Assembly (NCBI GenBank): GCA_945869735.1
Contig: CAMBPQ010000026.1
Coordinates: forward strand, 1-40,674
DNA from: Planctomicrobium piriforme
GTDB taxonomy: Bacteria > Planctomycetota > Planctomycetia > Pirellulales > UBA1268
Length of the DNA: 40,674 bases
Direction: 5' to 3'
Numbering within the stretch: the stretch's first letter is position 1; every line of letters starts with the position of its first letter. Below, in pieces: positions 14,821 through 40,674 of the stretch. The position numbers and the translations under genes were made by a program. Under the pieces are notes generated by a model. It was not told the origin of the DNA. It saw only the letters and a program-made list of their open reading frames with translations, and searched no databases.

Positions 14821-14878
14821 CAGAGTCCGCAAAAAGCGGCCCTGAAATGCAAATCCGCCCCATCCTTGATGAAAAAAA

Positions 14879-14904: not shown

Positions 14905-15061
14905 GAAAACAAATGCAAGATAGCCGTATTCGGGGGCGGGTCAAGCAGTTTCCCAGAGGCGGGCCAGCCGGGCCGCTCACGCGGCCAAGCCCCCTATCTT
15001 CCCTATTCCAAAAAACCTGCACAACCGGCACATCCGGACCCGATTTTGATGACGGTTTACT

Positions 15062-16483: not shown

Positions 16484-16489
16484 TGCACG

Positions 16490-16609
16490 CCTCCCGACAG
16501 GAAGCCCCAAGCGCGAGCGCGGGGAATACGCCCTCCACCCCAACCCGTTCCACACCACGCCAACGCCCACCACCCGTATTCCCAGCGCTCGCGCTCCGGG
16601 CTTCTTGGC
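16490..16609 (+). repeat. Palindromic repeat, L-R pair
   Basis: The L arm (16490-16530, core GGAAGCCCCAAGCGCGAGCG) and R arm (16570-16609, core CGTATTCCCAGCGCTCGCGC) are separated by 39 bases. By eye, 26 of 29 core positions pair between L and R. Both arms carry the GAG/CTC version of the central triplet. The L arm starts only 7 bases after the porin stop codon, so the hairpin would form at the 3' end of the porin mRNA, upstream of argB. Confidence 0.9.
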
Positions 16610-16671
16610 CAAGCCGGGCGTGGCCTCGTTCCCGCCGCTTTTTCATCCGTATTCAACTCCCCAACGGGTGT

Positions 16672-16677
16672 TAGAAT
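16672..16677 (+). promoter_or_regulatory. Possible -10 element for the arg operon
   Basis: TAGAAT matches a sigma-70 -10 hexamer. No good -35 is visible at 16-18 bases. A start site near 16684 would leave a short leader before GTG 16718, which argues against translation from TTG 16685. Confidence 0.3.
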
Positions 16678-16717
16678 CTCTTGTTTGGTTCCTGCCTCAC
16701 GAAGGACCGTTCGCGAC

Positions 16718-17680
16718 GTGCCCTCCACTCCGTCCGTAACCAAGGCCCAGCAGAAGGCGATCCAGAAGGCCGACACGCTCATCGAAGCGCTTGGCTGGAT
16801 TCGCAAGTTCCGCGACACGACCACCGTCATCAAGCTCGGCGGCAGCGTCCTTGAACATCCCGACTCCCTCCGCCACCTGCTGCTCGACATCGTGTTTTTG
16901 TCGACGCTCGGCATGCGGATCGTGGTTGTCCACGGTGGCGGCAAGGCCATCAGCCGGGCGATGGACGAGGCCGGCATCGAGCCGAAGTGGGTGCAGGGTC
17001 GCCGCTACACAGACGACGCCACACTCGCCATCGTGGAGAAGGTGCTCGCCACCGAACTCAACCACGACCTGGTCGCCAAGCTCGAGGAGTTCGGCGGCCG
17101 GGCGATGTCGCTCAACTTTCTCTCGACCAACGTCCTGTTCGGTGAGCGGCTCACGCTCGACGGCCCCGACGGGCAGTCGGTCGACCTCGGCCATGTCGGC
17201 GAGGTCAACCGTGTCGACCGGCTCACGATTGACAACCTCATGTACGCCGGCCAAGTGCCGGTGATTCCCTCGATGGCCATGGGGCCCGATGGCGAGAAGC
17301 TCAACGTCAACGCCGACACCGCAGCGACGGCCGTGGCCGCCGGCATCGGGGCCGAAAAGCTCGTCGTGCTCTCCGACATCCCGGGCGTGCTCCGCGACGT
17401 CGCCGATTTCGAGAGCCTGATCCCGCACCTCACCGCCGCCGAAGCTCGTCGACTGATCGCCGACGGCACGATAGCGGCCGGCATGATCCCCAAGATCGAG
17501 GGCTGCCTCCAGACGCTGGAAGAGGGCGTCAAGAAGATCCACATCATCGACGGCCGCCTGCGGCACTCGCTCCTCCTCGAGATTTACACGACCAGCGGCG
17601 TCGGCACTGAGCTCGTCCGTGACGAGTCGCTGTCATCGCCCAAGCCCAAGTCCACGGCCGCTGCGGCCGGCAAACGGTAG
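16718..17680 (+). CDS. argB: Acetylglutamate kinase
   Basis: The product has 320 residues and phosphorylates N-acetylglutamate with ATP in arginine biosynthesis. Conserved amino-acid-kinase motifs are KLGGS (residues 39-43), VHGGGK (71-76), [16 protein letters not shown] and VLSDIPGVL, and [20 protein letters not shown] matches the family C-terminal lobe. A roughly 20-residue Ser/Pro/Lys/Ala tail follows the fold. I chose GTG 16718 over TTG 16685, since both are open and the extra 11 residues are not family-like. It is the first gene of argB-argD-argF, with 49 bases to argD. Confidence 0.93.
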
Positions 17681-17729
17681 CACACGGTTCCCCGCCCCTC
17701 TTCCCTCCTTTTTTAGATGGGAGTCTTCA

Positions 17730-18953
17730 ATGGCCACGATCGACTCTGCAGTCGGCGACGCGACACAGCGCGTGATCGACACGTTCGACCGCTACGTCGT
17801 GCCCAACTACAGGCGGTTCCCGGTGTGCCTCGTGAAGGGCGAGGGCTCGCGAGTGTGGGACGCCGAGGGCCGGGAATACCTCGACCTGTTTCCGGGCTGG
17901 GGCTGCAACCTTCTGGGCCACTGCCCCGAGCCGGTGGTCCGCGCGGTGCAGGAGCAGGTCGCGAAGCTGATCCACGTGCCCAACACGTGGTACACGGAGA
18001 CCCAGGGCGAATGGGCGCACCTGCTCTCGGAGCGGTCGTTCGGCGGGCAGGCCTTCTTCTGCAACTCCGGCACCGAGGCCAACGAGGCGGCGATCAAACT
18101 GGTCCGCCTTCGCACCAACGGTGAGAAATACAAGATCATCACGTTTCAGGGTGGCTTCCACGGCCGCACCATGGGGAGCGTGACGGCGACCGCGCAGCCG
18201 AAATACCACGAGGGCCTTGGGCCCATGCTCGCCGGCTTCCAGTATGCCCCGCACGGCGACCTCGCCGCCGTCGAAAAACTCGTCGATGACCGCACCGGCG
18301 GCATCCTCGTCGAGCCGATCCTCGGCGAGGGGGGCATCGTTCCCGCGCCGCCGGGCTTCCTCCAGGGCTTGCGGAAGATCGCCGACGAACGCGACTTGCT
18401 GCTCGTGTTCGACGAGGTGCAGTGTGGCTGCGGTCGGACCGGAAAGTGGTTCGGCTACCAGCACTTCGGCGTCGTACCCGACGTGATGACGCTCGCCAAG
18501 AGCCTCTGCGCCGGGATCGCCGGCGGCGCGATGCTCACCACAGGAGAGCTTGCCAAGCACCTCCGTCCGGGGATGCATGCCTCCACGTTCGGTGGCAATC
18601 CGATCGCTGCGGCCGCGGGCATCGCGACGATCCGCACGATCGAGGAGCAGGGGCTCCTGGGGCATGTCGATCGGGCAGCCGCGGCGTTCCGCACGCGACT
18701 CGAGGCGCTGCAGGACAGGTGCGATGCCGTCCGCGCCGTCCGCGTGATCGGCATGATGATCGGTGTCGAGCTCTCGATCGACTGCGCCGCCGTCGTGCAG
18801 GCGTGCCTCGACCGCAATCTGCTCGTCAACTCCACACAGGGCCGGGTCATCCGGCTCCTGCCAGCGATGACGATCTCCCCGGCCGACGTCGAGGACGGCT
18901 GCGACCGGCTGGCCGATGCGATCCTCGAAGTGGCGTCTCACACGGCCACCTGA
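17730..18953 (+). CDS. argD: Acetylornithine aminotransferase
   Basis: The product has 407 residues. This is a class III PLP enzyme interconverting N-acetylglutamate semialdehyde and N-acetylornithine. Motifs are FFCNSGTEANEAAIKLVR (PLP phosphate binding, from residue 109), FQGGFHGRT (139-147), FDEVQCGCGRTG (PLP aspartate, 227-238) and TLAKSLCAG with the Schiff-base lysine K257. ATG 17730 is preceded by GGGAG at good spacing; the frame is open further upstream into argB but that part is not family-like. It lies between argB and argF, 10 bases before argF, so arginine rather than other omega-amino substrates is the natural assignment. Confidence 0.93.
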   Translation: MATIDSAVGDATQRVIDTFDRYVVPNYRRFPVCLVKGEGSRVWDAEGREYLDLFPGWGCNLLGHCPEPVVRAVQEQVAKLIHVPNTWYTETQGEWAHLLSERSFGGQAFFCNSGTEANEAAIKLVRLRTNGEKYKIITFQGGFHGRTMGSVTATAQPKYHEGLGPMLAGFQYAPHGDLAAVEKLVDDRTGGILVEPILGEGGIVPAPPGFLQGLRKIADERDLLLVFDEVQCGCGRTGKWFGYQHFGVVPDVMTLAKSLCAGIAGGAMLTTGELAKHLRPGMHASTFGGNPIAAAAGIATIRTIEEQGLLGHVDRAAAAFRTRLEALQDRCDAVRAVRVIGMMIGVELSIDCAAVVQACLDRNLLVNSTQGRVIRLLPAMTISPADVEDGCDRLADAILEVASHTAT

Positions 18954-27000: not shown

Positions 27001-28701
27001 ATGGCCAACGCGTTTTCTCAGATTCTCGTCGCCGAAGGCATCGTCTCCGCCGAGCAGCTTGCGGAAGCCGTGCGGATCGCCGGCACGTCGGGCAAGCAGG
27101 TGCACGACGAGGTTGTTCGTCTCGGCTATGCCCCCGGCGAGAAGGTGATGAAGGCCCTTGCCAAGGCCCACCGCCTCAAGTTCGTCAACCTCGCCGACAT
27201 CGCGGTGACTGAGGAGGTGATCGACCTACTGCCCGAGAGCGTCGCCCGTGAAAACACGATCTTCCCGCTTTCGGAGTCGGGGGGTTCGCTTCGCATTGCC
27301 ACCTGCGATCCCACCGACATGGACGCGCAGGAGAAGCTGCGGTTCATCCTCAACCGCGACATCGAGATGGCCCTGGCGGTCCGCGAGCAGATCGTGGAGG
27401 CGATCAACCGCCACTACGGCCTCTCCGACGGCGAGAGCGCCGACTCGATGCTTCAGGAGTTCACCGACACCGCGATCGACTTCACCGAGACGGCCATCGA
27501 GCAGCAGGGCGCAGCAGCCCAGGAAGAGACGTCCGACGCGCCGGTGGTGAAGCTCGTCAACCTCGTGATCACCGAGGCGGTGCAGCTCCGCGCCAGCGAT
27601 ATCCACATCGAGCCCTTCGAAGACCGCGTGCGAATCCGCTACCGCATCGACGGCCGGCTGGTGGAGCGCGACAACCCGCCCCGGCGGCTCCTCGGGGCGA
27701 TCCTCTCCCGCATCAAGATCCTCTCCAAGCTCGACATCGCCGAGCGGCGTCGTCCGCAGGACGGCCGGATCAAGCTCACGGCCGACGGCAAAGACTATGA
27801 CCTCCGCGTGAGCGTATTGCCGACCAATCACGGTCAGTCGGTTGTGATGCGGATCCTCGACAAGGAAAACATCAAGGTCGGCATCCGGCAGTTGGGCCTC
27901 GCCGAGAATGAGTTTCGGCAGTTCAAGAACCTGATCCGCCGTCCCAACGGGATCATCCTCGTGACGGGCCCCACGGGCTCGGGCAAGACGACCACCCTCT
28001 ACGCATCGCTCAACGAGCTCAACCGCCCCGACACCAAGATCATCACCGCCGAGGACCCGGTGGAGTATTACCTCGCCGGCATCAATCAGGTGGAGATCAA
28101 GCACCAGATCGGCCTCGACTTCGCCCGGGTCATCCGTGCCATGCTGCGGCAGGCGCCCAACGTGATCCTCGTGGGCGAGATGCGCGACACGGAAACGGCG
28201 CAGATGGGCATCCAGGCCTCGCTCACGGGGCATCTCGTGTTCTCGACGCTCCACACCAACGACGCCCCGGGCGCCATCACGCGGATGATCGACATGGGAG
28301 TGCCGGCCTATCTCGTGGCCTCGAGCGTGATTGCGGTGCTCGCCCAGCGGCTGGTTCGCATCAACTGCCCGAAGTGCAAGCAGCCCCATCAGCCGCTCGA
28401 CACCCAGATTGAGGCGGCGGGGATCACCCCGGAGATGCTCAAGGGGGCGACCTTTATGAAGGGCCGGGGCTGCGCCCACTGCACGAAGTCGGGCTACAAG
28501 GGCCGTCTTGGCATCTTTGAGTTGATGGTGATGAACAACAAGATCCGCGAACTCGCCTTCCAGGGGGCGGCCACCCAGGAAATCCGTCGGGCTGCGGTGA
28601 GCGGCGGGATGAAGGTGATGTTTGACGACGGCATCCAGAAGGCCCTCCGCGGCGTCACCACGCTCGACGAGGTGTTCCGGGTTTCGAAAAAGGCCGAATA
28701 G
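27001..28701 (+). CDS. GspE/PilB-type assembly ATPase (first copy)
   Basis: The product has 566 residues. It is a cytoplasmic hexameric ATPase that would drive pseudopilus or pilus extension. An N-terminal T2SSE-N/MshEN-type domain covers about residues 1-135, but the usual R-(L/I)-G opening is absent (NAFSQILVAEG instead). The catalytic core has RASDIHIEPFEDRVRIRYRI, Walker A GPTGSGKTTT (323-332), the Asp box EDPVEY, Walker B VILVGEMRD (388-396) and the His box STLHTNDAPG. A tetracysteine zinc site, CPKC (456-459) and CAHC (491-494), is characteristic of GspE/PilB and absent from PilT. It is separated from pilT by 443 bases holding a palindromic repeat. Confidence 0.92.
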   Translation: MANAFSQILVAEGIVSAEQLAEAVRIAGTSGKQVHDEVVRLGYAPGEKVMKALAKAHRLKFVNLADIAVTEEVIDLLPESVARENTIFPLSESGGSLRIATCDPTDMDAQEKLRFILNRDIEMALAVREQIVEAINRHYGLSDGESADSMLQEFTDTAIDFTETAIEQQGAAAQEETSDAPVVKLVNLVITEAVQLRASDIHIEPFEDRVRIRYRIDGRLVERDNPPRRLLGAILSRIKILSKLDIAERRRPQDGRIKLTADGKDYDLRVSVLPTNHGQSVVMRILDKENIKVGIRQLGLAENEFRQFKNLIRRPNGIILVTGPTGSGKTTTLYASLNELNRPDTKIITAEDPVEYYLAGINQVEIKHQIGLDFARVIRAMLRQAPNVILVGEMRDTETAQMGIQASLTGHLVFSTLHTNDAPGAITRMIDMGVPAYLVASSVIAVLAQRLVRINCPKCKQPHQPLDTQIEAAGITPEMLKGATFMKGRGCAHCTKSGYKGRLGIFELMVMNNKIRELAFQGAATQEIRRAAVSGGMKVMFDDGIQKALRGVTTLDEVFRVSKKAE

Positions 28702-29144
28702 GCCACGTCGTCCGTCAGGAAGCCCCAAGCGCGAGCGCGGGGTATACGCGTCGCCCTAAAATCGGCGTCCGAGGCGCCTCCCGGCCGTGCCTCGATGCCA
28801 CCCGTATACCCGTCGCTCGCGCTCCGGGCTTCCCGGGGCACTCGAAGCCCCGCGTCCAACTCGCCCGACGGGATTTTCTGGTCTGGGGGAGACTTTTCTG
28901 CCGATCCTGCGCATAATGCTGGTATCGAGTCGCCGACCTCCGTCAGGGGCTAAGGTTCGGCGCCGAGTGAAATGCTTCCCGTGACCGGGTCCGCCCCCTC
29001 ATTCTCGCTGCCCTTCCGCTGCGGCATTTCCGCGGGCCGGCAACTATTCTCTCACCGGGTTTCCGGTCAGAATAGATTTGCTTTTGGAGGACGTTCCGAA
29101 GGCGTTTCATCGCCAGCCGAGCCCATCCATCTGGGGACGCATCC
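28702..29144 (+). other. Long intergenic region before pilT
   Basis: The first third holds the palindromic L-R repeat (28711-28838). The remaining ~300 bases contain no convincing open frame. CATAAT at 28912-28917 could be a -10 element, without a clear -35. GGAGG near 29086 is too far from the pilT ATG; the pilT ribosome site is probably GGGGA just upstream of 29145. This region is the likely promoter of the pilT-to-gspJ operon. Confidence 0.45.
28711..28838 (+). repeat. Palindromic repeat, L-R pair with compensatory changes
   Basis: The L arm (28711-28749) ends in GGGGTATACG where other copies have GGGGAATACG. The R arm (28798-28838) begins CCCGTATACCCG where others have CCCGTATTCCC. The two changes restore pairing with each other. 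The R end GGGCTTCC also pairs two bases further with L GGAAGCCC than the usual GGGCTTCTT does. The spacer is 48 bases. It begins 9 bases after the gspE stop codon. Confidence 0.9.
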
Positions 29145-30701
29145 ATGACCGCCATAGCCGGAAGTTCCGCGCAGTCGCAGCAGGTTGAAAAACTGCTGAA
29201 ACTCGCCTTCGACAACGGGGCAACGGAGATCCGCCTGTCGGGCAACGCCGCGCCCATGTTGCGGATCGATGGCCAGTTGCGTCCGCTCAAGAGCAAGCCG
29301 CTCACTGCCGACGACGTCGCGGGCTTGGCTGCCGCCATCATGCCGCCAGGGTGCGACCCGGCGAAGTTCGTGTTCGCCGCGCCGCAGGGCGACTGCGTGG
29401 CCGCCCTGCTCGATGTGCAGGGCACGAAGGTGCTGATCCTGAGTCCTGCCCAGGAGGCGTCTCCCGCGGCTGCGGCCGACATGCCGCTCGAACTCGATGT
29501 GCAGCGCGATGCACCGCCCGCGGCAGAGGCTGGGGGAGAGCGCGAAGACGTCTACGCCATGCCTCAGGCGGCCATCGGCACGATCCAGATCGACAAGCTC
29601 CTCAATGCAGCCGTGAAAAACGGCGTCAGCGACATCCACATCACCGCGGGCCTGCCGCCGGTGTTTCGTGTCGACGGCCACATGAAGCCGCAGCCCACGA
29701 AAGTGCTCACCCCCGACGACACCAACGGCCTGATGAAGTCGATCACGCCGGAGCGGTGCCAGGCAGAGCTCGCCGAAAAGGGCGGCTGCGACTTCGGCTT
29801 CGCCTTCAAGGATCTAGCCCGGTTCCGCGTCAGCGTGTTTAAGCAGCGAGGCAGCGTGGCGATGGTGCTGCGGCAGATTCCCAACAGGCTCCTCACGCCC
29901 GAGCAACTCGGCGTGCCCGAAATCTGCAAGAAGCTCGCCACCCGGCCCCGCGGCCTGTTTCTCGTGACCGGCCCGACGGGCTCCGGCAAGAGCACCACGC
30001 TCGCTTCGCTGATCGACTTCATCAACAAAAACTACGACCATCACATTATCACGATCGAAGACCCGATCGAATTTTACCACTACTCACAGAAGAGCACGGT
30101 GAACCAGCGGGAGGTCGGCACCGACGTGCCGAGCTTCTCAGAGGCGCTCCGCCGCGCCCTGCGGCAAGACCCCGACGTGATTCTCGTCGGCGAACTTCGC
30201 GACCTCGAGACGATCGAGGCCGCGATCTCGGCCGCTGAGACAGGCCACGTGGTCTTTGGCACGCTCCACACGACGGGCGCCCAGGGCACGGTCAACCGCA
30301 TTATCGACGCCTTTCCGACCAACCAGCAGGAGCAGGTCCGCACGCAGCTCTCGACGGCCATCCTTGGCGTGGTCTCGCAGACCCTCCTGCCGAAGATCGG
30401 CGGCGGCCGATGCGCTGCCTACGAGGTGCTCGTGGTCACGCCCGCCATCGGCAACCTGATCCGCGAAAATAAGACGTTCCGAATCAACTCGGCAATCCAG
30501 ACAGGGGCCAAACTCGGCATGAAACTGCTCGACGACGACCTCTTCCGCCTCTGGAACGAGAAAAAAGTCACCGAGGAAGACGTGCTTGCCAAGGCCCAAA
30601 ACGTCGACGAGCTCGCCAAGCGGATCACCAACGCCAAGCAGGGCATTTTCGACGACGAGGAAACGGTCGCCCGCAAGTCCGGCAAAGACGGGGAGAAGTA
30701 A
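29145..30701 (+). CDS. pilT: PilT-type ATPase with duplicated N-terminal domain
   Basis: The product has 518 residues; typical PilT is about 345-370. The last ~370 residues are a standard PilT: N-domain 148-235 (DIHITAGLPPVFRVDG), Walker A GPTGSGKS (276-283), Asp box IEDPIEF, Walker B VILVGELRD (345-353), His box GTLHTTGA and the PilT signature AIGNLIREN (434-442). No tetracysteine site is present, as expected. The extra N-terminal ~145 residues contain a second, weaker copy of the N-domain start: residues 14-66 align without gaps to 148-200, sharing KLL, NG, DI/EI, R-(I/V)-DG, LT-x-DD and GL. A Pro/Ala/Glu linker follows. PilT powers pilus retraction in known systems. gspE2 starts 3 bases after its stop. 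Confidence 0.93.
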   Translation: MTAIAGSSAQSQQVEKLLKLAFDNGATEIRLSGNAAPMLRIDGQLRPLKSKPLTADDVAGLAAAIMPPGCDPAKFVFAAPQGDCVAALLDVQGTKVLILSPAQEASPAAAADMPLELDVQRDAPPAAEAGGEREDVYAMPQAAIGTIQIDKLLNAAVKNGVSDIHITAGLPPVFRVDGHMKPQPTKVLTPDDTNGLMKSITPERCQAELAEKGGCDFGFAFKDLARFRVSVFKQRGSVAMVLRQIPNRLLTPEQLGVPEICKKLATRPRGLFLVTGPTGSGKSTTLASLIDFINKNYDHHIITIEDPIEFYHYSQKSTVNQREVGTDVPSFSEALRRALRQDPDVILVGELRDLETIEAAISAAETGHVVFGTLHTTGAQGTVNRIIDAFPTNQQEQVRTQLSTAILGVVSQTLLPKIGGGRCAAYEVLVVTPAIGNLIRENKTFRINSAIQTGAKLGMKLLDDDLFRLWNEKKVTEEDVLAKAQNVDELAKRITNAKQGIFDDEETVARKSGKDGEK

Positions 30702-30704
30702 GTC

Positions 30705-32423
30705 ATGGCCCTCAAGCGTATCGGACAGATTCTGGTCGACCTCGGGCTCATCGACGAGCAGCAGCTCGCGACGATGCTCGAGGAGCAGTCGAACCGCGGC
30801 GGTGAACTCCTCGGCAAGATCGGCGTGGCGCTCGGGTTCTACACCGACGAGCAGCTCGGCGAGGCGCTGGCCGAGCAGTGGGGCACCACGTTTGTCACGC
30901 TCTACGACCGCCAGATTCCAGTCGACGTGATCCGCCTCGTTAGCGAGCCGATGGCCCAGCTCTACCGAGTGGTGCCTCTCGAGCTCGTGGGCGACCGACT
31001 CACCATCGCCTCGGCCGAGCCGCAGAAGTTCCAGATTGCCGACGAGCTCCACACTCTCCTTGGCTACGACATCCACGTCTGCGTGGCGACCGAGCCCGAG
31101 ATCACGAAGACGATTGAGAAGCTCTTCTCCTCGGAGACCGAGAGCGTGGAGTCGCTCGTCGAAGACCTCGAGGCCGACGACGCCCTCGCCGCCGCGGCGG
31201 CCGCCGCCGGCAAGGAGGGCGTCACCGACCTGACGAGCGTCGAGGCTCTCGCCGAGAGCGCCCCGGTGCGGAAGCTGCTCAACATGGTGCTCCTCCTCGC
31301 GATCCGCGACGGCGCCAGCGACATCCACTTCGAGCCCTTCGAGACGGATTTTCGCATTCGCCTCAAGGCCGACGGTGTGCTCCAGGAGATGGTGCCGCCG
31401 CCCAAGCATCTCGCCTTCGCGATCACCACCCGGATCAAGGTGATGGCCAACCTCGACATCGCCGAGCGCCGGATGCCGCAGGACGGCCGGATCGAGCTAA
31501 CGGTGGGCGGCCATCCGGTCGACCTCCGCGTGAGCGTGCTGCCGACCTTGTTCGGCGAGAGCGTGGTGATGCGGGTGCTCGACCGTGGCGTGGTATCGCT
31601 GAATCTCGAAAAGATCGGGATGGAGCAGACAATGCTGCGGAAGTTCCGCGAGGTGATCAGGCGGCCCAACGGCATCGTGCTGGTCACCGGCCCCACGGGC
31701 TCCGGCAAGACGACCACGCTCTACTCGGCCCTCTCCGAGCTCAACGAGATCGAAGACAAGCTGATCACGACCGAAGACCCGGTCGAGTACGACATCGACG
31801 GCATCGTGCAGGTGCCGATCGACGCCGACATCGGCAACACCTTCGCCGCCTGCCTTCGCTCGATCCTCCGCCAGGATCCCGATCGTATCCTCGTGGGCGA
31901 GATTCGCGACGTGGAAACGGCCGAGATCGCGGTGCAGGCGTCGCTTACCGGCCACATGGTGTTTTCCACGCTGCACACCAACGACGCCCCTTCGACGGTC
32001 ACGCGCCTCCGCGACATGGGCGTGCCGCCGTTTTTGATCACAGCCACGGTCGAGGCGATCCTCGCCCAGCGGCTCGTGCGGCGGATCTGCACGGGCTGCC
32101 GGGAGGAGATCGTTCCCGGGGCCGACGTGCTGGCCGACTTGGAAATGACGACCGACCAGGCCGTTGGCAAAAAGTTCTTCCGCGGCAAGGGCTGCGACAA
32201 GTGCAACCGCACCGGTTACAAGGGCCGGCTCGGCATCTACGAGCTGCTGATCATGAACGATGAGATGCGGGATATGATCATGCGCAATGCCTCCACCGAA
32301 GAGCTCCGCGAAGCCGCCCGCCGCAATGGCATGGTGACCCTCCGCGACTCCGGCATGGAGGGCATCTTCACCGGCCAGACGACGGCCGACGAGGTGATCC
32401 GCGAAACCATCCTGGATGCGTGA
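30705..32423 (+). CDS. GspE/PilB-type assembly ATPase (second copy) with MshEN-like N-domain
   Basis: The product has 572 residues. The N-terminus carries two tandem motifs of the MshEN c-di-GMP-binding type: RIGQILVDLGLIDEQQLATM (from residue 5) and GKIGVALGFYTDEQLGEALA (from residue 38). An acidic/Ala linker (about 142-180) precedes the catalytic core: GASDIHFEPFETDFRIRL, Walker A GPTGSGKTTT (329-338), TEDPVEYD, Walker B RILVGEIRD (394-402) and STLHTNDAPS. The zinc tetracysteine is CTGC (462-465) and CDKC (497-500). It should power pilin polymerisation, possibly under c-di-GMP control, which is inference from the motif. It is tightly packed: 3 bases after pilT, 2 bases before gspF. Confidence 0.93.
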   Translation: MALKRIGQILVDLGLIDEQQLATMLEEQSNRGGELLGKIGVALGFYTDEQLGEALAEQWGTTFVTLYDRQIPVDVIRLVSEPMAQLYRVVPLELVGDRLTIASAEPQKFQIADELHTLLGYDIHVCVATEPEITKTIEKLFSSETESVESLVEDLEADDALAAAAAAAGKEGVTDLTSVEALAESAPVRKLLNMVLLLAIRDGASDIHFEPFETDFRIRLKADGVLQEMVPPPKHLAFAITTRIKVMANLDIAERRMPQDGRIELTVGGHPVDLRVSVLPTLFGESVVMRVLDRGVVSLNLEKIGMEQTMLRKFREVIRRPNGIVLVTGPTGSGKTTTLYSALSELNEIEDKLITTEDPVEYDIDGIVQVPIDADIGNTFAACLRSILRQDPDRILVGEIRDVETAEIAVQASLTGHMVFSTLHTNDAPSTVTRLRDMGVPPFLITATVEAILAQRLVRRICTGCREEIVPGADVLADLEMTTDQAVGKKFFRGKGCDKCNRTGYKGRLGIYELLIMNDEMRDMIMRNASTEELREAARRNGMVTLRDSGMEGIFTGQTTADEVIRETILDA

Positions 32424-32425
32424 CC

Positions 32426-33757
32426 ATGCCCACCTACATGTTTGAAGCCATCGACGCGGCCACCGGCAAGGAAATCCGGGACACCGTCGACGCTGCCAGC
32501 GAGGCCGAGGCCCAGGCCACGATCCGGTCGATGGGCTACATGGTCACGAAGCTCAAGGCGCAGCGGGCGAAGGCCAGCAAGTCGGGCGGAGGCCGCGGCA
32601 AGAAGCCGGGCCGCACCTTTGCGATGGGCGGTGTGAAGGGCAAGGATCTCACGCTCTTCACGCGTCAGCTCTCGATTCTCCAAGACGCCGGCCTGCCGAT
32701 CCTTCGCAGCCTCAAGGTGCTCGCCGAGATGCAGAAGCCGGGCCGGCTCAAAAACTCGCTCCTCGACGTCTGCGACGAGATCGAAGGCGGGTCGACTCTT
32801 TCGGAGGCGATGTCGAAGAGCCCCAAGGCGTTCGACCGCCTGTATTGCAACATGATCCGGGCCGGTGAGGCAGGAGGCGCGCTCGAGGTGATTCTCCGTC
32901 GGCTCGCGGAGTTCATGGAGCGGAGCGAGTCGCTCCGCCGCAAGGTGAAAGGCGCGCTCGTCTATCCGATCGTGGTGGTGCTGGTCGCCGTCGGCATCCT
33001 CACGTTCATCATGATGAAGATCGTCCCTCAGTTCAAAAAGATCTTCGACGACTTCGGCAGCACCTTGCCGCCGATGACGCAGATCCTGATCGACATCTCC
33101 AACTGGGTGGTCAACTACTGGTATCTGATCCCGGCGATTCCCTTCGGCATCAATATGCTCATCAAGGCGATCAAGCTCATCCCCTACGGACGCTTCGGCT
33201 GGGACCTGTTCGTACTCAAGATGCCGATCTTCGGCCCACTCGTCGAGAAAAACATCCTCTCCCGCAGCGCCCGCACGCTCGGCACGCTCCTTGCGAGCGG
33301 CGTGCCGATCCTCGAGGCGCTCAACATCACGAAGGAAACTTCGGGCAACATGATGTTCGAGCGGCTCTTCGGGAAGGTGTCTGATTCGATCCGTGACGGC
33401 GAGTCGATCGCCAAGCCGCTCAAGGCCTATGCCGTCCCGCCGTTCAACCTGGTGGCGCTGCTCTTCTGGACGTTCTTCGCCCCGGTTATCGGGGTGCTGA
33501 TGTACCTCGTGAAATACAAGAAGCCGGTCGTCGACGACCTCGTGGTCAACATGGTTGACGTGGGTGAGGAGTCGGGCGAGCTCGACACGATGCTCTACAA
33601 GGTGGCCGACACCTACGACGAGGAGGTGGCGGTGCTCACGGAGAGCCTGACGAGCCTGATGGAGCCGCTGCTCATCATCTTCCTCGGCGGTGCGGTGGGT
33701 TTCATCGTGATCGCGCTCTTCATGCCGCTGATCAAACTGATCCAGGATCTGTCGTGA
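32426..33757 (+). CDS. GspF/PilC-type inner-membrane platform protein with extra hydrophobic insertion
   Basis: The product has 443 residues. It is the platform protein that couples the ATPases to pilin assembly. The two GspF domains begin LFTRQLSILQDAGLPILRSL (78-97) and FVLKMPIFGPLVEKN, RTLGTLLASGVPILEAL (262-299). Expected membrane helices are at 178-200 and 411-436. Unusually, after VPPF (337-340) there is an insertion of about 30 residues, NLVALLFWTFFAPVIGVLMY and onwards to about 371, before the conserved NMVDVGEESGELDTML. In E. coli GspF, LFPPMM runs straight into the GE-SGELD motif. The insertion contains an additional predicted membrane segment. ATG 32426 follows the gspE2 stop by 2 bases; the last 4 bases overlap the next gene. 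Confidence 0.92.
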   Translation: MPTYMFEAIDAATGKEIRDTVDAASEAEAQATIRSMGYMVTKLKAQRAKASKSGGGRGKKPGRTFAMGGVKGKDLTLFTRQLSILQDAGLPILRSLKVLAEMQKPGRLKNSLLDVCDEIEGGSTLSEAMSKSPKAFDRLYCNMIRAGEAGGALEVILRRLAEFMERSESLRRKVKGALVYPIVVVLVAVGILTFIMMKIVPQFKKIFDDFGSTLPPMTQILIDISNWVVNYWYLIPAIPFGINMLIKAIKLIPYGRFGWDLFVLKMPIFGPLVEKNILSRSARTLGTLLASGVPILEALNITKETSGNMMFERLFGKVSDSIRDGESIAKPLKAYAVPPFNLVALLFWTFFAPVIGVLMYLVKYKKPVVDDLVVNMVDVGEESGELDTMLYKVADTYDEEVAVLTESLTSLMEPLLIIFLGGAVGFIVIALFMPLIKLIQDLS

Positions 33758-34677
33758 CGACCGTGCACCCCACACCCCGCGTCGTGGCAGCCCCCCGGCG
33801 GATGCCGGGGCCGCCGGGCGCGTCGTCGGCAGTGCGCGAGCCACGGAGCGCGGCCCGCCGGGCGTTTACCCTGGTCGAACTGCTGGTCGTGGTCTCGATC
33901 ATCCTGGTGCTCATGGGGCTGATGGCGTCCGCCGTGTCGGCCGCGCGGGGCAGTCAGAAGAAGCAGGCCACGCAGGCGCTGATCGCGAAGCTCGACGTGA
34001 TCATTCAGCAGCAGTACGCGACCTATGCGTCGCGGAACATACCCGGGGCGACCACGTCTGCAGCCCGTGGCGTCGGCCTCCGAAAGATGGCCACGGGCGA
34101 TTTGCCAGACAGTTGGGCCGACGTGGCGTACATGGCGTCGAACGCCTCGCAGTTCACGTCGTCGCCGCAGCGGGCCTACGTGGCCATCTACAACGCGGCC
34201 ATCGCGGCCAACAAAACGCCCACCTCCGACTACAGCGACGCCGAGTGCCTGTTCATGATTGTTATGCAGGGTGGAATCGCGAACTGCCTTGACTGTGGTG
34301 AACTCAAAACGACCGAAAAGGGCGATACGGATAGCGACGGTTTTTTTGAGTTCTTGGACGCGTGGGGGCAGCCTCTCCGCTACGTCCTCTGGCCGGCTGG
34401 GCTGGAACTTCCGCCCGGAAGTGGCAAGTTCTTTTCCACGAACCTTCCAATTTCTTCCGCGGCCGCAGGAAGAACCATGCGTCCGCTGATTTTTTCCGGC
34501 GGCGTTGACCAAACGAACTCAACTGCTGTGAACGGGGGATCGAATCTGCAACTCGGCGTTAAGTGTGGAGACCCGACCGACCCAACCGTGTCGACCTTTG
34601 GCGGCAAGGAAGCATCGGCTGGCGGGGACTTCCGCGCCGACAACATCACCAACCTCGACGCGGAGGCATTGAAATGA
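33754..34677 (+). CDS. GspG-like major pseudopilin
   Basis: The product has 307 residues. The class III prepilin signal is ARRA|FTLVELLVVVSIILVL with Glu5, but Ala replaces the usual Gly at -1. The leader is 37 residues from GTG 33754, or 21 from ATG 33802. C-terminal GspG features are present: DTDSDG (191-196, calcium-loop-like) and DAWGQPLRY (202-210, matching the family DPWGNPY). At 307 residues it is about twice E. coli GspG. The GTG overlaps the gspF stop by 4 bases. Expected role: main pseudopilus subunit, inserted in the inner membrane and processed by a prepilin peptidase not in this window. Confidence 0.85.
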   Translation: MTTVHPTPRVVAAPRRMPGPPGASSAVREPRSAARRAFTLVELLVVVSIILVLMGLMASAVSAARGSQKKQATQALIAKLDVIIQQQYATYASRNIPGATTSAARGVGLRKMATGDLPDSWADVAYMASNASQFTSSPQRAYVAIYNAAIAANKTPTSDYSDAECLFMIVMQGGIANCLDCGELKTTEKGDTDSDGFFEFLDAWGQPLRYVLWPAGLELPPGSGKFFSTNLPISSAAAGRTMRPLIFSGGVDQTNSTAVNGGSNLQLGVKCGDPTDPTVSTFGGKEASAGGDFRADNITNLDAEALK

Positions 34678-35693
34678 TGCCGCTCCGCCATCGCACCGCC
34701 TTCACGCTCGTCGAGCTTCTCGTGGTCACCTCCATCATGGCCGTGTTCTTGGGGCTCGTCCTTTCCGGTGCCAAGCCGGGCACGAACGGACAGATCCGCC
34801 AAGCGGCCCAATCGCTGGTTTCCGTGCTGACATCGGCACAGTCCCGTGCCCTGGGAAACCGGGCGGGCAGCGCCGTGATCTTCGAATCGGGAACGGCGGC
34901 GGGCGTCGCGGCCTCGATGTGTATCCGCGTCTCGAACGGTGACGTGCCGCCGTTCATCACCGGCACAGCCGGCACGTTCACATCACTGACCCCGAACTCA
35001 GCCACGATTCCGCTCACGCCGACGAATGCCGACGCCGCAGACCTCCAACACGGCTATAAGATCCAGTTCGGTGGCGCTGCGAGCGGGGCGAGTGTTCCCT
35101 ACCAGCCGCCGTCGCCCTGGCTCTCGCTCGCTGCTCCAGTCGCCAGCGGCGCGACGGTGAGCTTCCGGACAAGCGCCAGCCAGGCTCTCACCAACACGGT
35201 CTGGCCCGAGCCGACGAAAGCGGTGGGCGGTGGCAGCAACCCATTCGACTTTCAGGTTGCCAGGTATCCCCTGAAGGCGGACGTGGCCGCGGAGTTCCCG
35301 AAGGCCGTCGCCGTCGATCTTCGCTACAGCGGGATCGGTGACGATCCGACCACGGCCTGGGGCGGACTCGCAAATGACGGTGCGATCGCACTCGTCTTCG
35401 ACAGCATTGGTGGTGTCGACGCGCTGATGCAACAGGTGCTCGGAGAGGCCTCGATGCGCACCAACCAACCGATCGATCCCGTGCAGCCCTTCTACTTGCT
35501 CGTTACAGCCCGATCCGAGATCGATGATTCGACCTTTCCTGCGCTGTCGAGCCCCAAGGCTCTCTGGATCGCCGTACACCCACAAACCGGCCGCGTGACG
35601 GTCGCGTCGAACGTTGTGCAGTCGGGCACCGACGCCACCGCGCTGCGTGCCGCCCGAGCCAAGGCCCGTGCTCTTGCCACCATCGGCAAATGA
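34674..35693 (+). CDS. GspH-like pseudopilin
   Basis: The product has 339 residues from ATG 34674, overlapping the previous stop (ATGATG, next ATG at 34677). The prepilin signal is HRTA|FTLVELLVVTSIMAVFL, with a short 9-residue leader and Ala at -1. The region after the helix (IRQAAQSLVSVLTSAQSRAL) matches the GspH pattern, where the helix leads into a surface beta domain. The rest is beta-rich, and the C-terminus (ALRAARAKARALATIGK) is helical and basic. Assignment to GspH rather than another minor pseudopilin rests on order and the post-helix segment. The last 4 bases overlap the next gene. Confidence 0.78.
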   Translation: MMPLRHRTAFTLVELLVVTSIMAVFLGLVLSGAKPGTNGQIRQAAQSLVSVLTSAQSRALGNRAGSAVIFESGTAAGVAASMCIRVSNGDVPPFITGTAGTFTSLTPNSATIPLTPTNADAADLQHGYKIQFGGAASGASVPYQPPSPWLSLAAPVASGATVSFRTSASQALTNTVWPEPTKAVGGGSNPFDFQVARYPLKADVAAEFPKAVAVDLRYSGIGDDPTTAWGGLANDGAIALVFDSIGGVDALMQQVLGEASMRTNQPIDPVQPFYLLVTARSEIDDSTFPALSSPKALWIAVHPQTGRVTVASNVVQSGTDATALRAARAKARALATIGK

Positions 35694-36625
35694 ACGCCAC
35701 CTTCCACATCCCGACATGCCCGTCTCCCCGCGATCGCGGTCGACGCGGCGGAATGACGCTTCTCGAGGTGCTGGTCGCCTGCGGCATCCTTGTCGTGGGG
35801 CTTGCGAGCATCGCCTCGCTGCTGCCTGCCGCGGGTTCGCGACTGTCGCAGGCAGCGCTCGAAGACAGGACCGGTGCCGCCGCTGCCAACGCCTACGCCG
35901 AGATCGTCAACCGAGGCCTGATCGCAGCCGACCTGTTTGGATCGGGCACGACGAAAGCCTGTGTCTTCGGCCAGACGTTTCCGACGCTGGCGACAACCGC
36001 CACGGCCAGTAACTTCATTGTGTCAGCCACGTCGACCGTATTGCAGACCCGCATTGACTCAACCCGGGGGTTCCAGTTGGAAGACGAGGTCGTCTACACG
36101 GCACCCACCACAGCCGACACACCCAACAACTCGTTCGTGAGCGGCAATGTCGGTCCGCGGGCGTATCGTGACGGGTTGTGCTGGGGGGCGATGTTGGCAC
36201 CGACTCAGTATCCGGCGGTCGCCGGCGGTGTCGCCACGCTCAGCATTGCGGTCTTCAAGAAGCCCGGGAACTCAAAACTGTTGACGCTGACCGGGACTCC
36301 TGCGCCGATGTTTCGATACACCACCGGAGCCGCGTTGGGCATCGCGGATGAAGCGACTCGCAAACAGTTTCTCGCTGGCTGCTCGTCGGTGCTCGTGCTG
36401 CCAACGGTGGCAAATACTCCACCGAGATGGGTCAAAATCACGTCCTCATGGACGAATCCCGGACCGGGCATTCCTGAAGATGCCACACAGCGGAAATCGT
36501 TCATCGTTCTCGACCTTGCCGCTCTGGGCTCGGGCACCGCAAACCTGATCTCGAGCGGAACGATGACCGTGATCGGTTTCGAGAACTTGATGCGCGTCGA
36601 TCAATACCCCGTGTCTTTGGATTGA
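35690..36625 (+). CDS. GspI/PilV-like minor pseudopilin
   Basis: The product has 311 residues. The prepilin signal is RGG|MTLLEVLVACGILVVGL with a 21-residue basic leader; M at +1 and the 'LLEVLVA' form are characteristic of GspI/PilV proteins. E. coli GspI is about 120 residues, so this is much enlarged. The C-terminal region (TGAAAANAYAEIVNRGLIAA, then beta-rich) has no recognisable domain. The ATGA overlap with the previous gene implies coupled translation. The next ATG is 8 bases past its stop. Confidence 0.78.
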   Translation: MNATFHIPTCPSPRDRGRRGGMTLLEVLVACGILVVGLASIASLLPAAGSRLSQAALEDRTGAAAANAYAEIVNRGLIAADLFGSGTTKACVFGQTFPTLATTATASNFIVSATSTVLQTRIDSTRGFQLEDEVVYTAPTTADTPNNSFVSGNVGPRAYRDGLCWGAMLAPTQYPAVAGGVATLSIAVFKKPGNSKLLTLTGTPAPMFRYTTGAALGIADEATRKQFLAGCSSVLVLPTVANTPPRWVKITSSWTNPGPGIPEDATQRKSFIVLDLAALGSGTANLISSGTMTVIGFENLMRVDQYPVSLD

Positions 36626-36633
36626 CCGTCGCC

Positions 36634-39600
36634 ATGAACACGTCATCTCATTTTCGTCTCCCACCCAGCCGTCGGGGAGCCCTGCTGTTGCTGGTCCTCA
36701 CGTCCCTGTCGCTGTTCATGATGATCGGTGCGGCGATGCTTGTGATCGCCACCCGTTCGCGGACCGCGGCCCGGGCCTTCTCTGACGCCACCAACTCCAC
36801 GGCCAACGGTTCGATCCAGGCCAGTGCGATGCTTGACGAGGCGCTGATGGTGCTCCTGCGGGGCTCGAAAAGCGCGTTGCCTGCAGTAATGACGGAGAGC
36901 ATCCTCGAAGACAAATACGGCACCGACGTCGTAACCGGCACCGCCACGGCCCCAGCGAAGCTAACCGTCGGAACGCTCTCGAACTTCACGCCGATTCTGA
37001 GCACGACCCTGCAGGGGCTCTCTTCTCCCGCCCATCCCTGCGACCTGAATGGTCGGATCCTTACCTTTAAACCAGCGCCCAACGACGGCGACGTGGCGAG
37101 TTACCGTATTCTCCGCACAATCGCGAATGGCGGAGGGTATACCGTCTATCTTGCGAACACGCCCACCGCCCGGACCCCGCTGCTGCCCAAACAGTCAGCA
37201 GCGGTCGTGATCAACGGCCGTGAATTCACTCCCTCGATCTCGTCCACCGCCGTCGAAGCCTACGACTCCTTCGACAAGGACCCGTGGTTGGCCCAGATTC
37301 CCCTTTCCAACTCGCGACCCATCACATCTGGTTCGATCCGACCGTCTTACTCTCCGACGCCGATCGCTTCGGGCAGCGCGCCCTGCGACAACGATAACGA
37401 CGGCTTCGTCGACGGCGTCTGGATCTCCGGCACGACCGGCTTTCTGCCGGAGCGACCTTCGTCGCTAGGTGGCACGCTGAAGTATAAGGCGTCGTACCTC
37501 GTGCTCGACCTCGACAGCCGGCTCAATCTCAATGCCCATGGCTCTTTGGTGCCGGTCACGACTAGTTCGGCCGACTGGCCGGCAGATGTCGCCGGCACGG
37601 CAGTAAGCAGCGTGCCCCTCGGCCTCGGCTACGGCCCCGCCGATGTCGATGCCTCGCGAATCGTCGCCAGCGGCTCTGCAGTCGCAGGCGCTCCAGGGTT
37701 TCCAGGCCGCTGGTCCAGCATCGTCGTCGCTGGCACCTCGGCCTCCGCGAACGGCTCCAGCCAACGCCGGCCGACCCCAGTTGTCGGGCTGCCCATCGAC
37801 GGCCGCTACGGCGCCGATGCGGGCGGGAAATACGTTCCCGGCAAGCCCGACTCTACGGTCCCGCCGATGCAGCAGTGGACGCTCGGCGGCGGATCCCCCA
37901 CCGATCTCCATGTGCGGATGAAGACGTTCGTCGCGTCCACAGCCAGTGGAGTGCCCTCGCTCGTCTTCTACACGCCCGACCGCAACGCCAACGATTTCCT
38001 TCAGAGCCCCTACGAACTCCGTCTCGATGGCGACGGTCCGCGGGGCACGCAGGTGCGGCAGCCGTCCGCCAAGTCGAATACGCCCCCCAGCGATAGCCCT
38101 TTTGTGGCGACCGAGCTCGAGCGCATCCTCCGACCGTTCGACTCCGACGCCGGCACTCTGCCGCCTCGGCTCGCCGTGCTGCTCGACGACTCTGCGGAGC
38201 GGTCGCGGATGACGGTCACCACCGACTCCTGGGACACACCCGTGATCACGGGCACCGCCATGACGAAGGTCCGTGGCTACCTGCAGCAGTTTCCGCCGCC
38301 CACCGCCCCTTCGGCCACGATCGCCACTGGCGCTGCATCGGCGGTGTACGACACGATGTCGCCCGACGTCAGCGCGGGCGTCCGCTTCGACATCAACCGA
38401 CCGCTCCAGTACGCAAACCTTCCCCCCGCCATGTTGCCGAAGATCAAGGAAAAGTATTGCCAGCACCTCTACACGCTCCTGGTCGCTCTGAGCCAACCGG
38501 CCAATCAGGCCACGGCGCAGTGGGCGGCGAATGTCTGCGACTTCCGCGACGCGGATTCCACGATGACGCGGTTTCGCTTCGATACCACTCCCACCGACGG
38601 CTGGACGGCGGGCACGTCGAGTGTCTTCGGGGCCGAGCGTCCGGAGGTCGTGATCACGGAGACACTCGCGTGGAGCGGCTATCTTTCGGTCGTCCTCTAC
38701 CATCCGTGGGCCGCCTGGATGGTCGACAAGGCAACCGCGACGAACATGACCGGGGGCACGCCCGTGGAGCAGGTCGATTCGAATCTCGCTGCGACCGACA
38801 ACGCCAACGCACTCGACCTGTCACGAAAGAATGCCGCCGGCGAGTCGATCTGGCGACTGCGGGTTGCCGGCGGTAGCCAAGTAGCCATCGGAGACGTGGC
38901 CGCGGGCCTCGGTGCGGCCGATATCGCCAAGTGCAAACTGCTCCCCAACGGCTACCTCTGCATTCAAACGTCTGCAGCTGCCGGCACGACGCTCCCTGCC
39001 CTCACGGTGTCTGCATTCATCCCAGGAGCCCCCGGGCCCGGCACCGTGGTGCTCGAACGGCTCGCCGATCCGACCAAACCCAAGAACGACGTTCAAACCA
39101 GCGACGACTACAACCCATACGTCGCCGTCGACGAGGCGACGATCACCGTCGCAGCAGATCAGATCACCGCGCAGAAACGGCAACGCAACCCGCTCACCAA
39201 CCCACGCCCGTTCTGGACGCAGGCCTGGATCGACGCCGCGGGGGCTCCCGCCGCCTATCCCAACAAAGCCCCCTGGTTTCACTGGCCCAACCGCCCATTC
39301 GTGAGCATCGCCGAACTAACGCTCGTGCCCACCGGCGACGCCAGCGGCATGCTGGCCGTCGGCGCGACAGCCCCTCCGGTGAATAATCCCACGAGCCTGA
39401 TCCTCGATGCGGTGCATGTTCCCTCTCGCTTCGGGGGTACGAGCATGCGGATCGGCGATGACTCGCTCCTGCTGGCCACCGCAACGGCCGAACGGGTCTG
39501 CTCGACGCTGCTCCCCAAGTGGCGGGAACCGGGCCGTGTGAACGTCAACACGATCGTCGCCAACCCGGGCAACGCCACGTCACAAGTTGACGACGCTGTG

Positions 39601-40002
39601 TGGAAAGCCCTCGTGGGCGACGGTGTCGGAAACGTCAACGGCGGCACCAACCCGTTCGCGACGGGCACGCCCGCCGACGCTGCGAACTCGGTCACCAAAC
39701 TGCTCTCTATGTCGTCCGCGCCAGTCGGTCTCATCTTCACCGACAGTCCCGCGGCACCCCGCAACGACGATCCGTTCTTCACCTACGCCACCGCAAATCG
39801 AATGGCCAACTGTGGCACGATCCGCTCGCACGTGTTTGCCGTCTGGATCACGCTTGAGATCACCGACGACACGGCCAGTGCGCCCACGAAGACTTTCAAG
39901 CGGCTGTTTGCAATCGTCGACCGTTCCATCCCCGTCGGTTTCAGCAAGGGCGAAGACCTCAACGTTCGCGATACGATCCGCCTCGTGAGGTATCTGGAGT
40001 GA
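36634..40002 (+). CDS. Giant GspK-like pseudopilin
   Basis: The product has 1122 residues. The N-terminus is SRRG|ALLLLVLTSLSLFMMIGA, a prepilin-type signal lacking Glu5, as is normal for GspK, the tip subunit. GspK-type landmarks occur far apart: calcium-loop-like DNDNDG at 252-257, LDSRLNLNAHG (R296-N300) and GRVNVNTI (N970), plus FVSIAEL shortly before the last. In E. coli GspK (about 330 residues) the corresponding elements lie close together, so several hundred residues of unrecognised beta-rich sequence are inserted. ATG 36634 is chosen; an in-frame TTG at 36622 is possible. The gene sits between GspI-like and GspJ-like genes. Confidence 0.75.
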   Translation: MNTSSHFRLPPSRRGALLLLVLTSLSLFMMIGAAMLVIATRSRTAARAFSDATNSTANGSIQASAMLDEALMVLLRGSKSALPAVMTESILEDKYGTDVVTGTATAPAKLTVGTLSNFTPILSTTLQGLSSPAHPCDLNGRILTFKPAPNDGDVASYRILRTIANGGGYTVYLANTPTARTPLLPKQSAAVVINGREFTPSISSTAVEAYDSFDKDPWLAQIPLSNSRPITSGSIRPSYSPTPIASGSAPCDNDNDGFVDGVWISGTTGFLPERPSSLGGTLKYKASYLVLDLDSRLNLNAHGSLVPVTTSSADWPADVAGTAVSSVPLGLGYGPADVDASRIVASGSAVAGAPGFPGRWSSIVVAGTSASANGSSQRRPTPVVGLPIDGRYGADAGGKYVPGKPDSTVPPMQQWTLGGGSPTDLHVRMKTFVASTASGVPSLVFYTPDRNANDFLQSPYELRLDGDGPRGTQVRQPSAKSNTPPSDSPFVATELERILRPFDSDAGTLPPRLAVLLDDSAERSRMTVTTDSWDTPVITGTAMTKVRGYLQQFPPPTAPSATIATGAASAVYDTMSPDVSAGVRFDINRPLQYANLPPAMLPKIKEKYCQHLYTLLVALSQPANQATAQWAANVCDFRDADSTMTRFRFDTTPTDGWTAGTSSVFGAERPEVVITETLAWSGYLSVVLYHPWAAWMVDKATATNMTGGTPVEQVDSNLAATDNANALDLSRKNAAGESIWRLRVAGGSQVAIGDVAAGLGAADIAKCKLLPNGYLCIQTSAAAGTTLPALTVSAFIPGAPGPGTVVLERLADPTKPKNDVQTSDDYNPYVAVDEATITVAADQITAQKRQRNPLTNPRPFWTQAWIDAAGAPAAYPNKAPWFHWPNRPFVSIAELTLVPTGDASGMLAVGATAPPVNNPTSLILDAVHVPSRFGGTSMRIGDDSLLLATATAERVCSTLLPKWREPGRVNVNTIVANPGNATSQVDDAVWKALVGDGVGNVNGGTNPFATGTPADAANSVTKLLSMSSAPVGLIFTDSPAAPRNDDPFFTYATANRMANCGTIRSHVFAVWITLEITDDTASAPTKTFKRLFAIVDRSIPVGFSKGEDLNVRDTIRLVRYLE

Positions 40003-40007
40003 CATCC

Positions 40008-40674
40008 ATGCCCCCGAATCCTGTGATCCTGACTCCCACGCCGCTCCGTACGACGCGGCGTTGGCCGACCGGCTTCAGTCTTGTCGAACTCCTCGTTGCC
40101 AGCGCCATTGCCTTGGTGGTGATGGGGGCGATCGCGCAGCTGTTTTCCCTGTTTGGAAGAACGATGTCTCAGAGCCAGGCCACGGTCGATCTCTCGGGGC
40201 GGATGCGGACCGCGGCGTGGCAGTTGCGGCAAGACCTCGCCGGAGTGACCGCCGATCTGGTGCCATGGAACCAGCCGGAATCGAACTCCGGCTATTTCGA
40301 ACTACTCGAGGGTCCTGTGCGCGACGCATCGTTTGCCCTTGCTGGTGGCGTGGTGACCGGGACCCTTAGCGCCGACACGGATGATTCGCTGTTCTTCACC
40401 ACGCGGTCGGCAGGCGATCCGTTCGTGGGCCGCTTCGGCGCGGGCACCATCGAGGCGCCGTGCGCCGAGGTGGCCTGGTTCTGTCGCGAAGCGGGCGACC
40501 AGCCCATCGCCGGCACGACGCTCTACAACCTCCACCGCCGCCAGTTGCTCGTCGTCGGCTTCGTAGGTACGGCACCCTTTTCCACCGGAAGTAACTCGGC
40601 TCCGGTGGCGGGTCTCATGCAGGCAGCCGGCGCGGGTGGCGTATCGACGCCTGTGTACGACCTGTCGCTCCGAC
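40008..40674 (+). CDS. GspJ/PilW-like minor pseudopilin (runs off right edge)
   Basis: This covers the first 222 codons. The signal is RRWPTG|FSLVELLVASAIALVVMG with a 22-residue leader and Glu5, the form typical of GspJ/PilW. The following MRTAAWQLRQDLAGVTADL matches the conserved region after the GspJ helix (R-x-LRxDL). Its start lies 5 bases after the giant GspK-like gene, so K precedes J here, whereas the canonical T2SS order is J then K. The 3' end is outside the window. Confidence 0.85.
   Translation, partial: MPPNPVILTPTPLRTTRRWPTGFSLVELLVASAIALVVMGAIAQLFSLFGRTMSQSQATVDLSGRMRTAAWQLRQDLAGVTADLVPWNQPESNSGYFELLEGPVRDASFALAGGVVTGTLSADTDDSLFFTTRSAGDPFVGRFGAGTIEAPCAEVAWFCREAGDQPIAGTTLYNLHRRQLLVVGFVGTAPFSTGSNSAPVAGLMQAAGAGGVSTPVYDLSLR

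What the first reader, a model, noticed from the sequence alone, without database searches (positions are those of the whole stretch)
36634..40002. GspK-like tip pseudopilin enlarged to 1122 residues
The GspK landmarks DNDNDG (252), LNLN (297-300) and NVNT (970) are hundreds of residues apart instead of adjacent. The large unrecognised insert could be an adhesin or effector domain displayed at the pseudopilus tip.
Basis: partly seen in the sequence, partly recalled or inferred. Interest (0 to 1): 0.5.

Follow-up and report, generated by a model that had tools for sequence, protein, structure and literature searches.

The report
Giant planctomycete GspK-like tip pilin
This very large protein looks like the tip subunit of a bacterial secretion or pilus filament into which extra domains, one shaped like the tail domain of animal nuclear lamins, have been inserted; the enlarged form is shared by many planctomycete bacteria and may let the filament grip something outside the cell.

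Summary
In detail: a 1122-residue ORF with DNDNDG at 252, LNLN at 297 and NVNT at 970. The GspK reading is supported by structure. An AlphaFold2 model aligns best with ETEC GspK (3ci0 chain K: Z 13.0, 260 of 280 residues, rmsd 4.5; next row Z 8.8), although no Pfam or NCBIfam GspK model matches. The size is not a peculiarity of this gene. It belongs to a family across Planctomycetia (mostly ~1100-2900 aa, this one near the small end) in a conserved operon: PilB ATPase and PilC platform, several prepilins, the giant. Other members of the order carry a separate ordinary T2SS operon with a 531-629 aa GspK, so the giant is a distinct variant, probably of a type IV pilus-like machine. The "unrecognised insert" is several inserts. 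One, residues about 669-838, has the lamin-tail (Ig-like) fold (ten lamin structures on top, Z 7.7-8.7), which sequence models missed. It sits inside the GspK helical domain, is less conserved than the core, and is absent from a natural paralogue. Best explanation: a GspK/PilX-type tip subunit carrying display modules at the filament end. Ligand, surface location and tip position are inferred, not shown.

The parts
36634..40002 (+). giant GspK-like minor pseudopilin, 1122 aa
36673..36861 (+). residues 14-76: long N-terminal alpha-1 helix after R-R-G (type III prepilin-like); Gly at -1, no Glu at +5
36922..37227 (+). residues 97-198: extra beta-barrel between alpha-1 and the pilin sheet (tentative, Z about 7 to EF-Tu/IF2 domain II-like, Upf1 1B and reductase barrels)
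37387..37413 (+). residues 252-260 DNDNDGFVD: conserved DxDxDGxxD loop, likely Ca2+ site (inferred)
37522..37533 (+). residues 297-300 LNLN (LDLDSRLNLN), counterpart of NESARLNLN in planctomycete GspK
37564..38085 (+). residues 311-484: poorly predicted, variable extra region
38086..38595 (+). residues 485-654: conserved helical region including AANVCDFRDADS, proposed counterpart of the first GspK helical (SAM-like) part
38638..39147 (+). residues 669-838: inserted lamin-tail-like (Ig-like) domain
39289..39330 (+). residues 886-899 NRPFVSIAELTLVP, counterpart of NGPLESVEELLLVR of GspK
39541..39552 (+). residues 970-973 NVNT (REPGRVNVNT), counterpart of VPGRLNVNQ of GspK
39559..39825 (+). residues 976-1064: proposed second helical part of the GspK alpha-domain
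39832..39999 (+). residues 1067-1122: C-terminal pilin beta-strands, most conserved region
27001..28701 (+). PilB/GspE-type ATPase (MshEN + T2SSE)
29145..30701 (+). PilT-like ATPase (T2SSE)
   Evidence: the PilT label is from reading and recall
30705..32423 (+). second PilB/GspE-type ATPase (MshEN + T2SSE)
32420..33757 (+). PilC/GspF platform protein (T2SSF)
33754..34677 (+). prepilin, GspG/H-like
34674..35693 (+). prepilin, GspH-like (ATG at 34674 proposed; the listed ORF starts at 34563)
35690..36625 (+). prepilin, GspI/PilV-like
39999..40674 (+). prepilin, GspJ/PilW-like, cut by the contig end

Best explanation
A minor pseudopilin of the GspK/PilX type, whose GspK core (alpha-1, pilin sheet, two-part helical domain, C-terminal strands) has received several inserts, among them a lamin-tail-like Ig domain within the helical domain. 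It is cleaved by prepilin peptidase after G15, needs no Glu5 because it caps the filament, and with the I- and J-like neighbours starts and tops a pseudopilus or type IV pilus-like fibre driven by the PilB/PilT/PilC set. The bulky inserts then stand at the fibre tip and bind an external ligand or a secreted partner. Shown here: sequence, family, operon. Predicted here: fold of core and insert. Inferred: cleavage, tip position, surface exposure, binding.
For: Model of P0001 (pLDDT 70.3, pTM 0.79, alpha-1 = 14-76) aligns with GspK 3ci0_K at Z 13.0, 260 of 280 residues, rmsd 4.5, rank 1, rank 2 at Z 8.8. Gly at -1 in 34 of 34 and hydrophobic residue, never Glu, at +5 in 34 of 34 rows with residues there; GspK and PilX lack Glu5 (PMC7541494, passages). 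Profile-profile against four planctomycete GspK: N-terminus 82%, C-terminus 20-22%, with a co-linear alignment of PFxSxxEL, GRVNVNT and the last strands. Insert model: top ten VIA rows all lamin tails, Z 7.7-8.7, 103-118 residues, next Z 6.2; Foldseek ranks 1-4 lamin-B1, probability 0.99-1.00; profile match to 14 planctomycete lamin-tail domains 41.5-43.8% against at most 0.5% for 7 control regions. Operon: of 25 loci with 7.5 kb or more upstream, PilC-like 23, second PilB 23, G-like prepilin 24. Mean identity over 28 pairs: core regions 43-67%, inserts and linkers 26-42%. A paralogue of 721 aa (L036), from the same MAG as the long L033, lacks the lamin-tail insert and keeps the core.
Against: No Pfam or NCBIfam GspK model matches (one of 8 homologues hits NF037980 at E 0.72). 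Foldseek alone gives nothing at E <= 0.001 for either model and 3ci0 is not in its top 50. Sequence alignment of the first helical part to GspK is not significant (0.7%). Insert model is weak (pLDDT 61.5) and Z 8.7 is only a little above the usual best Z of 7-8 stated by the tool; with another column rule the lamin-tail profile match falls to 8%. The second helical part, a core region, also diverges (43%). Nothing shows tip position, export or binding.
Confidence: 0.62

Rival explanations
1. It is the tip or substrate-recruiting subunit of a true type II secretion pseudopilus: the inserts recognise secreted enzymes in the periplasm and never leave the cell.
For: GspK is the closest fold. No ordinary GspK (PF03934) was found in the own genome: nothing at E <= 0.001, best hit a ComEA-like HhH protein at E 0.00115. 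One secretin and one prepilin peptidase are present elsewhere in the genome.
Against: Four other genomes of the order carry a separate operon with an ordinary GspK followed by a PilM/GspL-like gene, so in them the giant is not the T2SS GspK. The operon holds a PilT-like ATPase. GspC, L and M were not recognised next to the giant in the loci read.
Confidence: 0.2
2. It is a type IV pilus tip adhesin, a functional replacement of PilX plus PilY1 in one chain.
For: Minor pilins plus one very large protein in one operon resembles the M. xanthus FimU-PilV-PilW-PilX-PilY1 clusters (PMC7541494, passages). PilT-like ATPase in the operon. A PilM gene followed by three genes of 463, 717 and 464 aa lies elsewhere in the genome.
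Against: No PilX_N or PilY1 match. No PilN match in the own genome. Adhesion not shown.
Confidence: 0.35
3. The inserts are an enzyme or effector domain.
For: Bacterial lamin-tail domains often accompany hydrolases (recalled; PMC6461901, passages, proposes a peptidase-anchoring role for one).
Against: No credible enzyme family matched in P0001 or in the 8 and 14 rows scanned (only sub-threshold single hits); the one insert that could be identified is an Ig-like fold.
Confidence: 0.05
4. Landmarks are fortuitous and the protein is unrelated to GspK.
For: No sequence-family match.
Against: Family-wide conservation and GspK as first structural match covering 260 of 280 residues.
Confidence: 0.05

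Closest known systems
GspK, minor pseudopilin of type II secretion (ETEC GspK, PDB 3ci0 chain K)
   Same: predicted core fold over 260 of 280 residues; prepilin N-terminus without Glu5; LNLN and N-x-N-T/Q landmarks in order; operon with G-, H-, I- and J-like prepilins
   Different: 1122 aa against about 330 in E. coli (recalled) or 531-629 in planctomycete GspK; extra barrel, extra 311-484 region and lamin-tail domain; no match to Pfam or NCBIfam GspK models; PilT-like ATPase in the operon
Modular type IV pilins (PilB of Streptococcus sanguinis, ComZ, CofB; PMC8179133, passages)
   Same: functional module grafted on a pilin, presumed tip location; as in ComZ and GspK the extra part is inserted rather than appended
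   Different: module is a lamin-tail fold, and the carrier is GspK-like; that survey looked for proteins with domain IPR012902, and its main text does not contain 'IPR001322' or 'LTD'
PilY1 with PilX (type IVa pilus tip complex)
   Same: one very large protein encoded with minor pilins; Glu5-less minor pilin at the top
   Different: PilY1 is not a pilin; here carrier and large part are one chain; no PilY1 domain
Lamin-tail domain (Pfam PF00932 LTD)
   Same: predicted fold and weak profile match of residues 669-838
   Different: below Pfam thresholds; located inside a pseudopilin
Verru_Chthon cassette protein A (TIGR02600)
   Same: large protein encoded with prepilin-like genes (recalled)
   Different: no match of P0001 or its 7 aligned homologues; hits in relatives cover about 55 N-terminal positions, mostly in other, shorter frames

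Membership tests
GspK | prepilin-like N-terminus with Gly at -1, long hydrophobic alpha-1, no Glu at +5 | tested here: met
   cleavage itself not tested
GspK | pilin fold interrupted by a helical domain, as in 3ci0 chain K | tested here: met
   predicted model, Z 13.0, 260 of 280 residues
GspK | match to PF03934, PF21687 or NF037980 | tested here: not met
   so I call it a GspK-fold variant, not a member of the curated family
GspK | encoded with GspE, GspF and other pseudopilins | tested here: met
GspK | GspC, D, L, M of a T2SS in the same operon | tested here: inconclusive
   not recognised next to the giant in the loci read; secretin and PilM lie on other contigs of the own genome
GspK | tip complex with GspI and GspJ; Ca2+ sites | not testable with these tools
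   needs complex structure or biochemistry
Lamin-tail domain | Ig-like lamin-tail fold | tested here: met
   predicted insert model, ten lamin structures on top, Z 7.7-8.7; Foldseek ranks 1-4
Lamin-tail domain | match to PF00932 | tested here: not met
   not listed for P0001 or homologues; no match in the own genome at E <= 0.01; profile-profile 41.5-43.8%
PilX / PilY1 | PilX_N or PilY1 domain | tested here: not met
Verru_Chthon cassette protein A (TIGR02600) | match to TIGR02600 | tested here: not met

The most novel reading that the evidence does not exclude
The giant is the tip receptor of the pili-like fibres of Planctomycetia that bind polysaccharide: a GspK-type cap carrying lamin-tail and other binding modules catches macromolecules, and fibre retraction brings them to the envelope for the uptake system that PMC5394234 describes as still to be characterised. 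Paralogous giants in one genome would give different ligands.
Probability: 0.17. Interest if true: 0.8.

Novelty: new variant of a known kind. Interest (0 to 1): 0.5.

Why it matters
It identifies by fold a large planctomycete protein family that Pfam and NCBIfam leave unnamed, suggests that a GspK-type cap can carry an inserted lamin-tail-like module, and offers a concrete gene to test for the unexplained fibres and macromolecule uptake of Planctomycetes.

Tried and rejected
Sequence-family scans (Pfam, NCBIfam) and a profile search of PDB sequences gave nothing useful. Foldseek alone on the whole model: no E <= 0.001 in PDB or viral models; other structural families are not excluded by their absence there. 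TIGR02600 as the family: rejected. The PF03934 hit in the own genome at E 0.00115 is a ComEA-like HhH protein, not GspK (the name ComEA is recalled). Lamin-tail by Pfam search: no match in the own genome, found only by fold. The barrel at 97-198 was not settled (Z about 7, many unrelated families). Two paper searches with 'lamin tail domain' found no report of this protein among their 3 listed papers (of these I read passages of PMC6461901 only); 'GspK' + 'Planctomycet', 'Planctomycetes' + 'pseudopilin' + 'type II secretion' and 'Verru_Chthon cassette' showed none either (listings, and passages of PMC8179133). Rows dropped: of 48 loci, 35 entered A2 and 13 did not (L058, L064, L065, L068-L072, L074-L078: short, divergent or cut). 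A5 uses 29 of the 30 segments that reached half of the window segment's length (L042 left out for a masked run).

Full report
The observation. It lies in a + strand operon of two PilB/GspE-type ATPases, a PilT-like ATPase, a PilC/GspF platform protein and three prepilins, and is followed by a fourth prepilin that the contig end cuts. The own genome has one copy.

A family, not a freak. The open frames in full-length loci are mostly about 1100 to 2900 aa; the window member is near the small end. In an even draw from the phylum, 17 of 246 genomes (the own one included) matched a family profile at E <= 1e-8: 4 of the order, 11 of one other family of the class, 2 others. So the large size is old. 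The motifs are conserved family-wide. The operon is too: of 25 loci with at least 7.5 kb upstream, 23 have a PilC-like and 23 the second PilB-like gene, 24 the G-like, 17 the H-like and 19 the I-like prepilin, and 9 a strong PilT match; PilT lies at the edge of the fetched flank, so that number is a lower bound. A J-like gene follows directly in 8 of 25 loci with 2.5 kb downstream.

Relation to GspK by sequence. No curated GspK model matches. In four other genomes of the order I found a separate operon with an ordinary GspK of 531-629 aa; two of the four were scanned and match PF21687 at E 3.3e-16 and 1.5e-18. Against a profile of these four, the giant's N-terminus matches with 82% probability and its C-terminus with 20-22%. 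The alignment, although weak, is co-linear: NRPFVSIAEL with NGPLESVDQL, EPGRVNVNT with VPGRLNVNQ, and the last strands. The spacing LNLN to N-x-N is 260-294 in the ordinary ones and 673 in the giant.

Relation to GspK by fold. The AlphaFold2 model from 36 sequences (pLDDT 70.3, pTM 0.79) has a helix 14-76 and C-terminal strands 1067-1121. VIA-align puts ETEC GspK first, Z 13.0 over 260 of its 280 residues at rmsd 4.5 and 11% identity; the next row has Z 8.8. Foldseek by itself gave no significant hit. Taken together I regard the GspK core as likely real.

The inserts. Compared with ordinary GspK the giant has a barrel at 97-198 (tentative), a variable stretch 311-484, and a domain between AANVCDFRDADS (631-642) and NRPFVSIAEL (886-895), two motifs whose counterparts in ordinary GspK lie a few tens of residues apart (by eye). 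Folded alone, residues 655-962 give an ordered core of about residues 668-844 whose ten best structural matches are all lamin A/C or lamin B1 tail domains (Z 7.7-8.7; Foldseek ranks 1-4). A profile of 14 lamin-tail domains from related genomes picks this region with 41.5-43.8% probability, while 7 other regions of the giant get 0.5% or less; with a different column rule the value is only 8%; a loosened alignment covers the whole lamin-tail profile. Over 28 pairs of 8 homologues the core is better conserved (54% alpha-1, 62% Ca/LNLN, 58% first helical part, 48% around GRVNVNT, 67% C-terminus) than the barrel (36%), 200-250 (42%), 311-484 (39%), the lamin-tail (39%) and the linker after it (26%); the second helical part, 43%, is an exception. 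Locus L036 encodes a 721-aa paralogue, from the same MAG as the long L033, with the core but only 90 residues where P0001 has 312 (651-962). The insert is thus a removable module.

How it most likely works. By analogy with GspK, which lacks Glu5 like PilX and is proposed to form the tip (PMC7541494, passages read; PMC8179133, passages read), the giant should cap a filament begun with the I- and J-like subunits, with its inserts outward. The DxDxDGxxD loop is probably a Ca2+ site (inference). The ligand is unknown. Planctomycetes have pili-like fibres of about 12 nm and an uncharacterised macromolecule uptake (PMC5394234, passages), and appendages reported to bind branched carbohydrates (PMC8303584, passages). 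That these fibres carry the giant is a hypothesis that I could not test.

Novelty. Modular pilins and the inserted helical domain of GspK are known (PMC8179133, passages). A lamin-tail-like insert in a GspK-type core, and its spread over Planctomycetia, did not show in my paper searches; the library is partial. I rate it a new variant of a known kind.

Noticed in passing
L031:14776-15849, L033:11401-12324; own genome G000: DUF1559 (PF07596) prepilin-like genes lie downstream of the giant cassette in two relatives; the own genome has 19 DUF1559 match places. The giant's machine may assemble or export these unexplained planctomycete pilin-like proteins.
   Followed up: partly
L033 and L036; L098:4355-9055 and 14765-18385: Some genomes hold two or more giants; in L033 the cassette has prepilins but no PilB/PilC hit in the 6.5 kb upstream, whereas the paralogue in L036 sits in the full operon.
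   Followed up: partly
L094, L095, L096, L097: Separate ordinary T2SS operons with a 531-629 aa GspK followed by a PilM/GspL-like gene in four other members of the order.
   Followed up: partly
window 36922-37227: Beta-barrel of residues 97-198 resembling translation-factor domain II and reductase barrels, Z about 7, identity unsettled.
   Followed up: no
L117:4233-11262 (own genome, contig 53): PilM followed by three genes of 463, 717 and 464 aa, likely the inner-membrane part of the machine, on another contig than the giant operon.
   Followed up: partly
window 27001-32423: Two PilB-type ATPases and a PilT-like ATPase with an extra N-terminal part stand in one operon.
   Followed up: no
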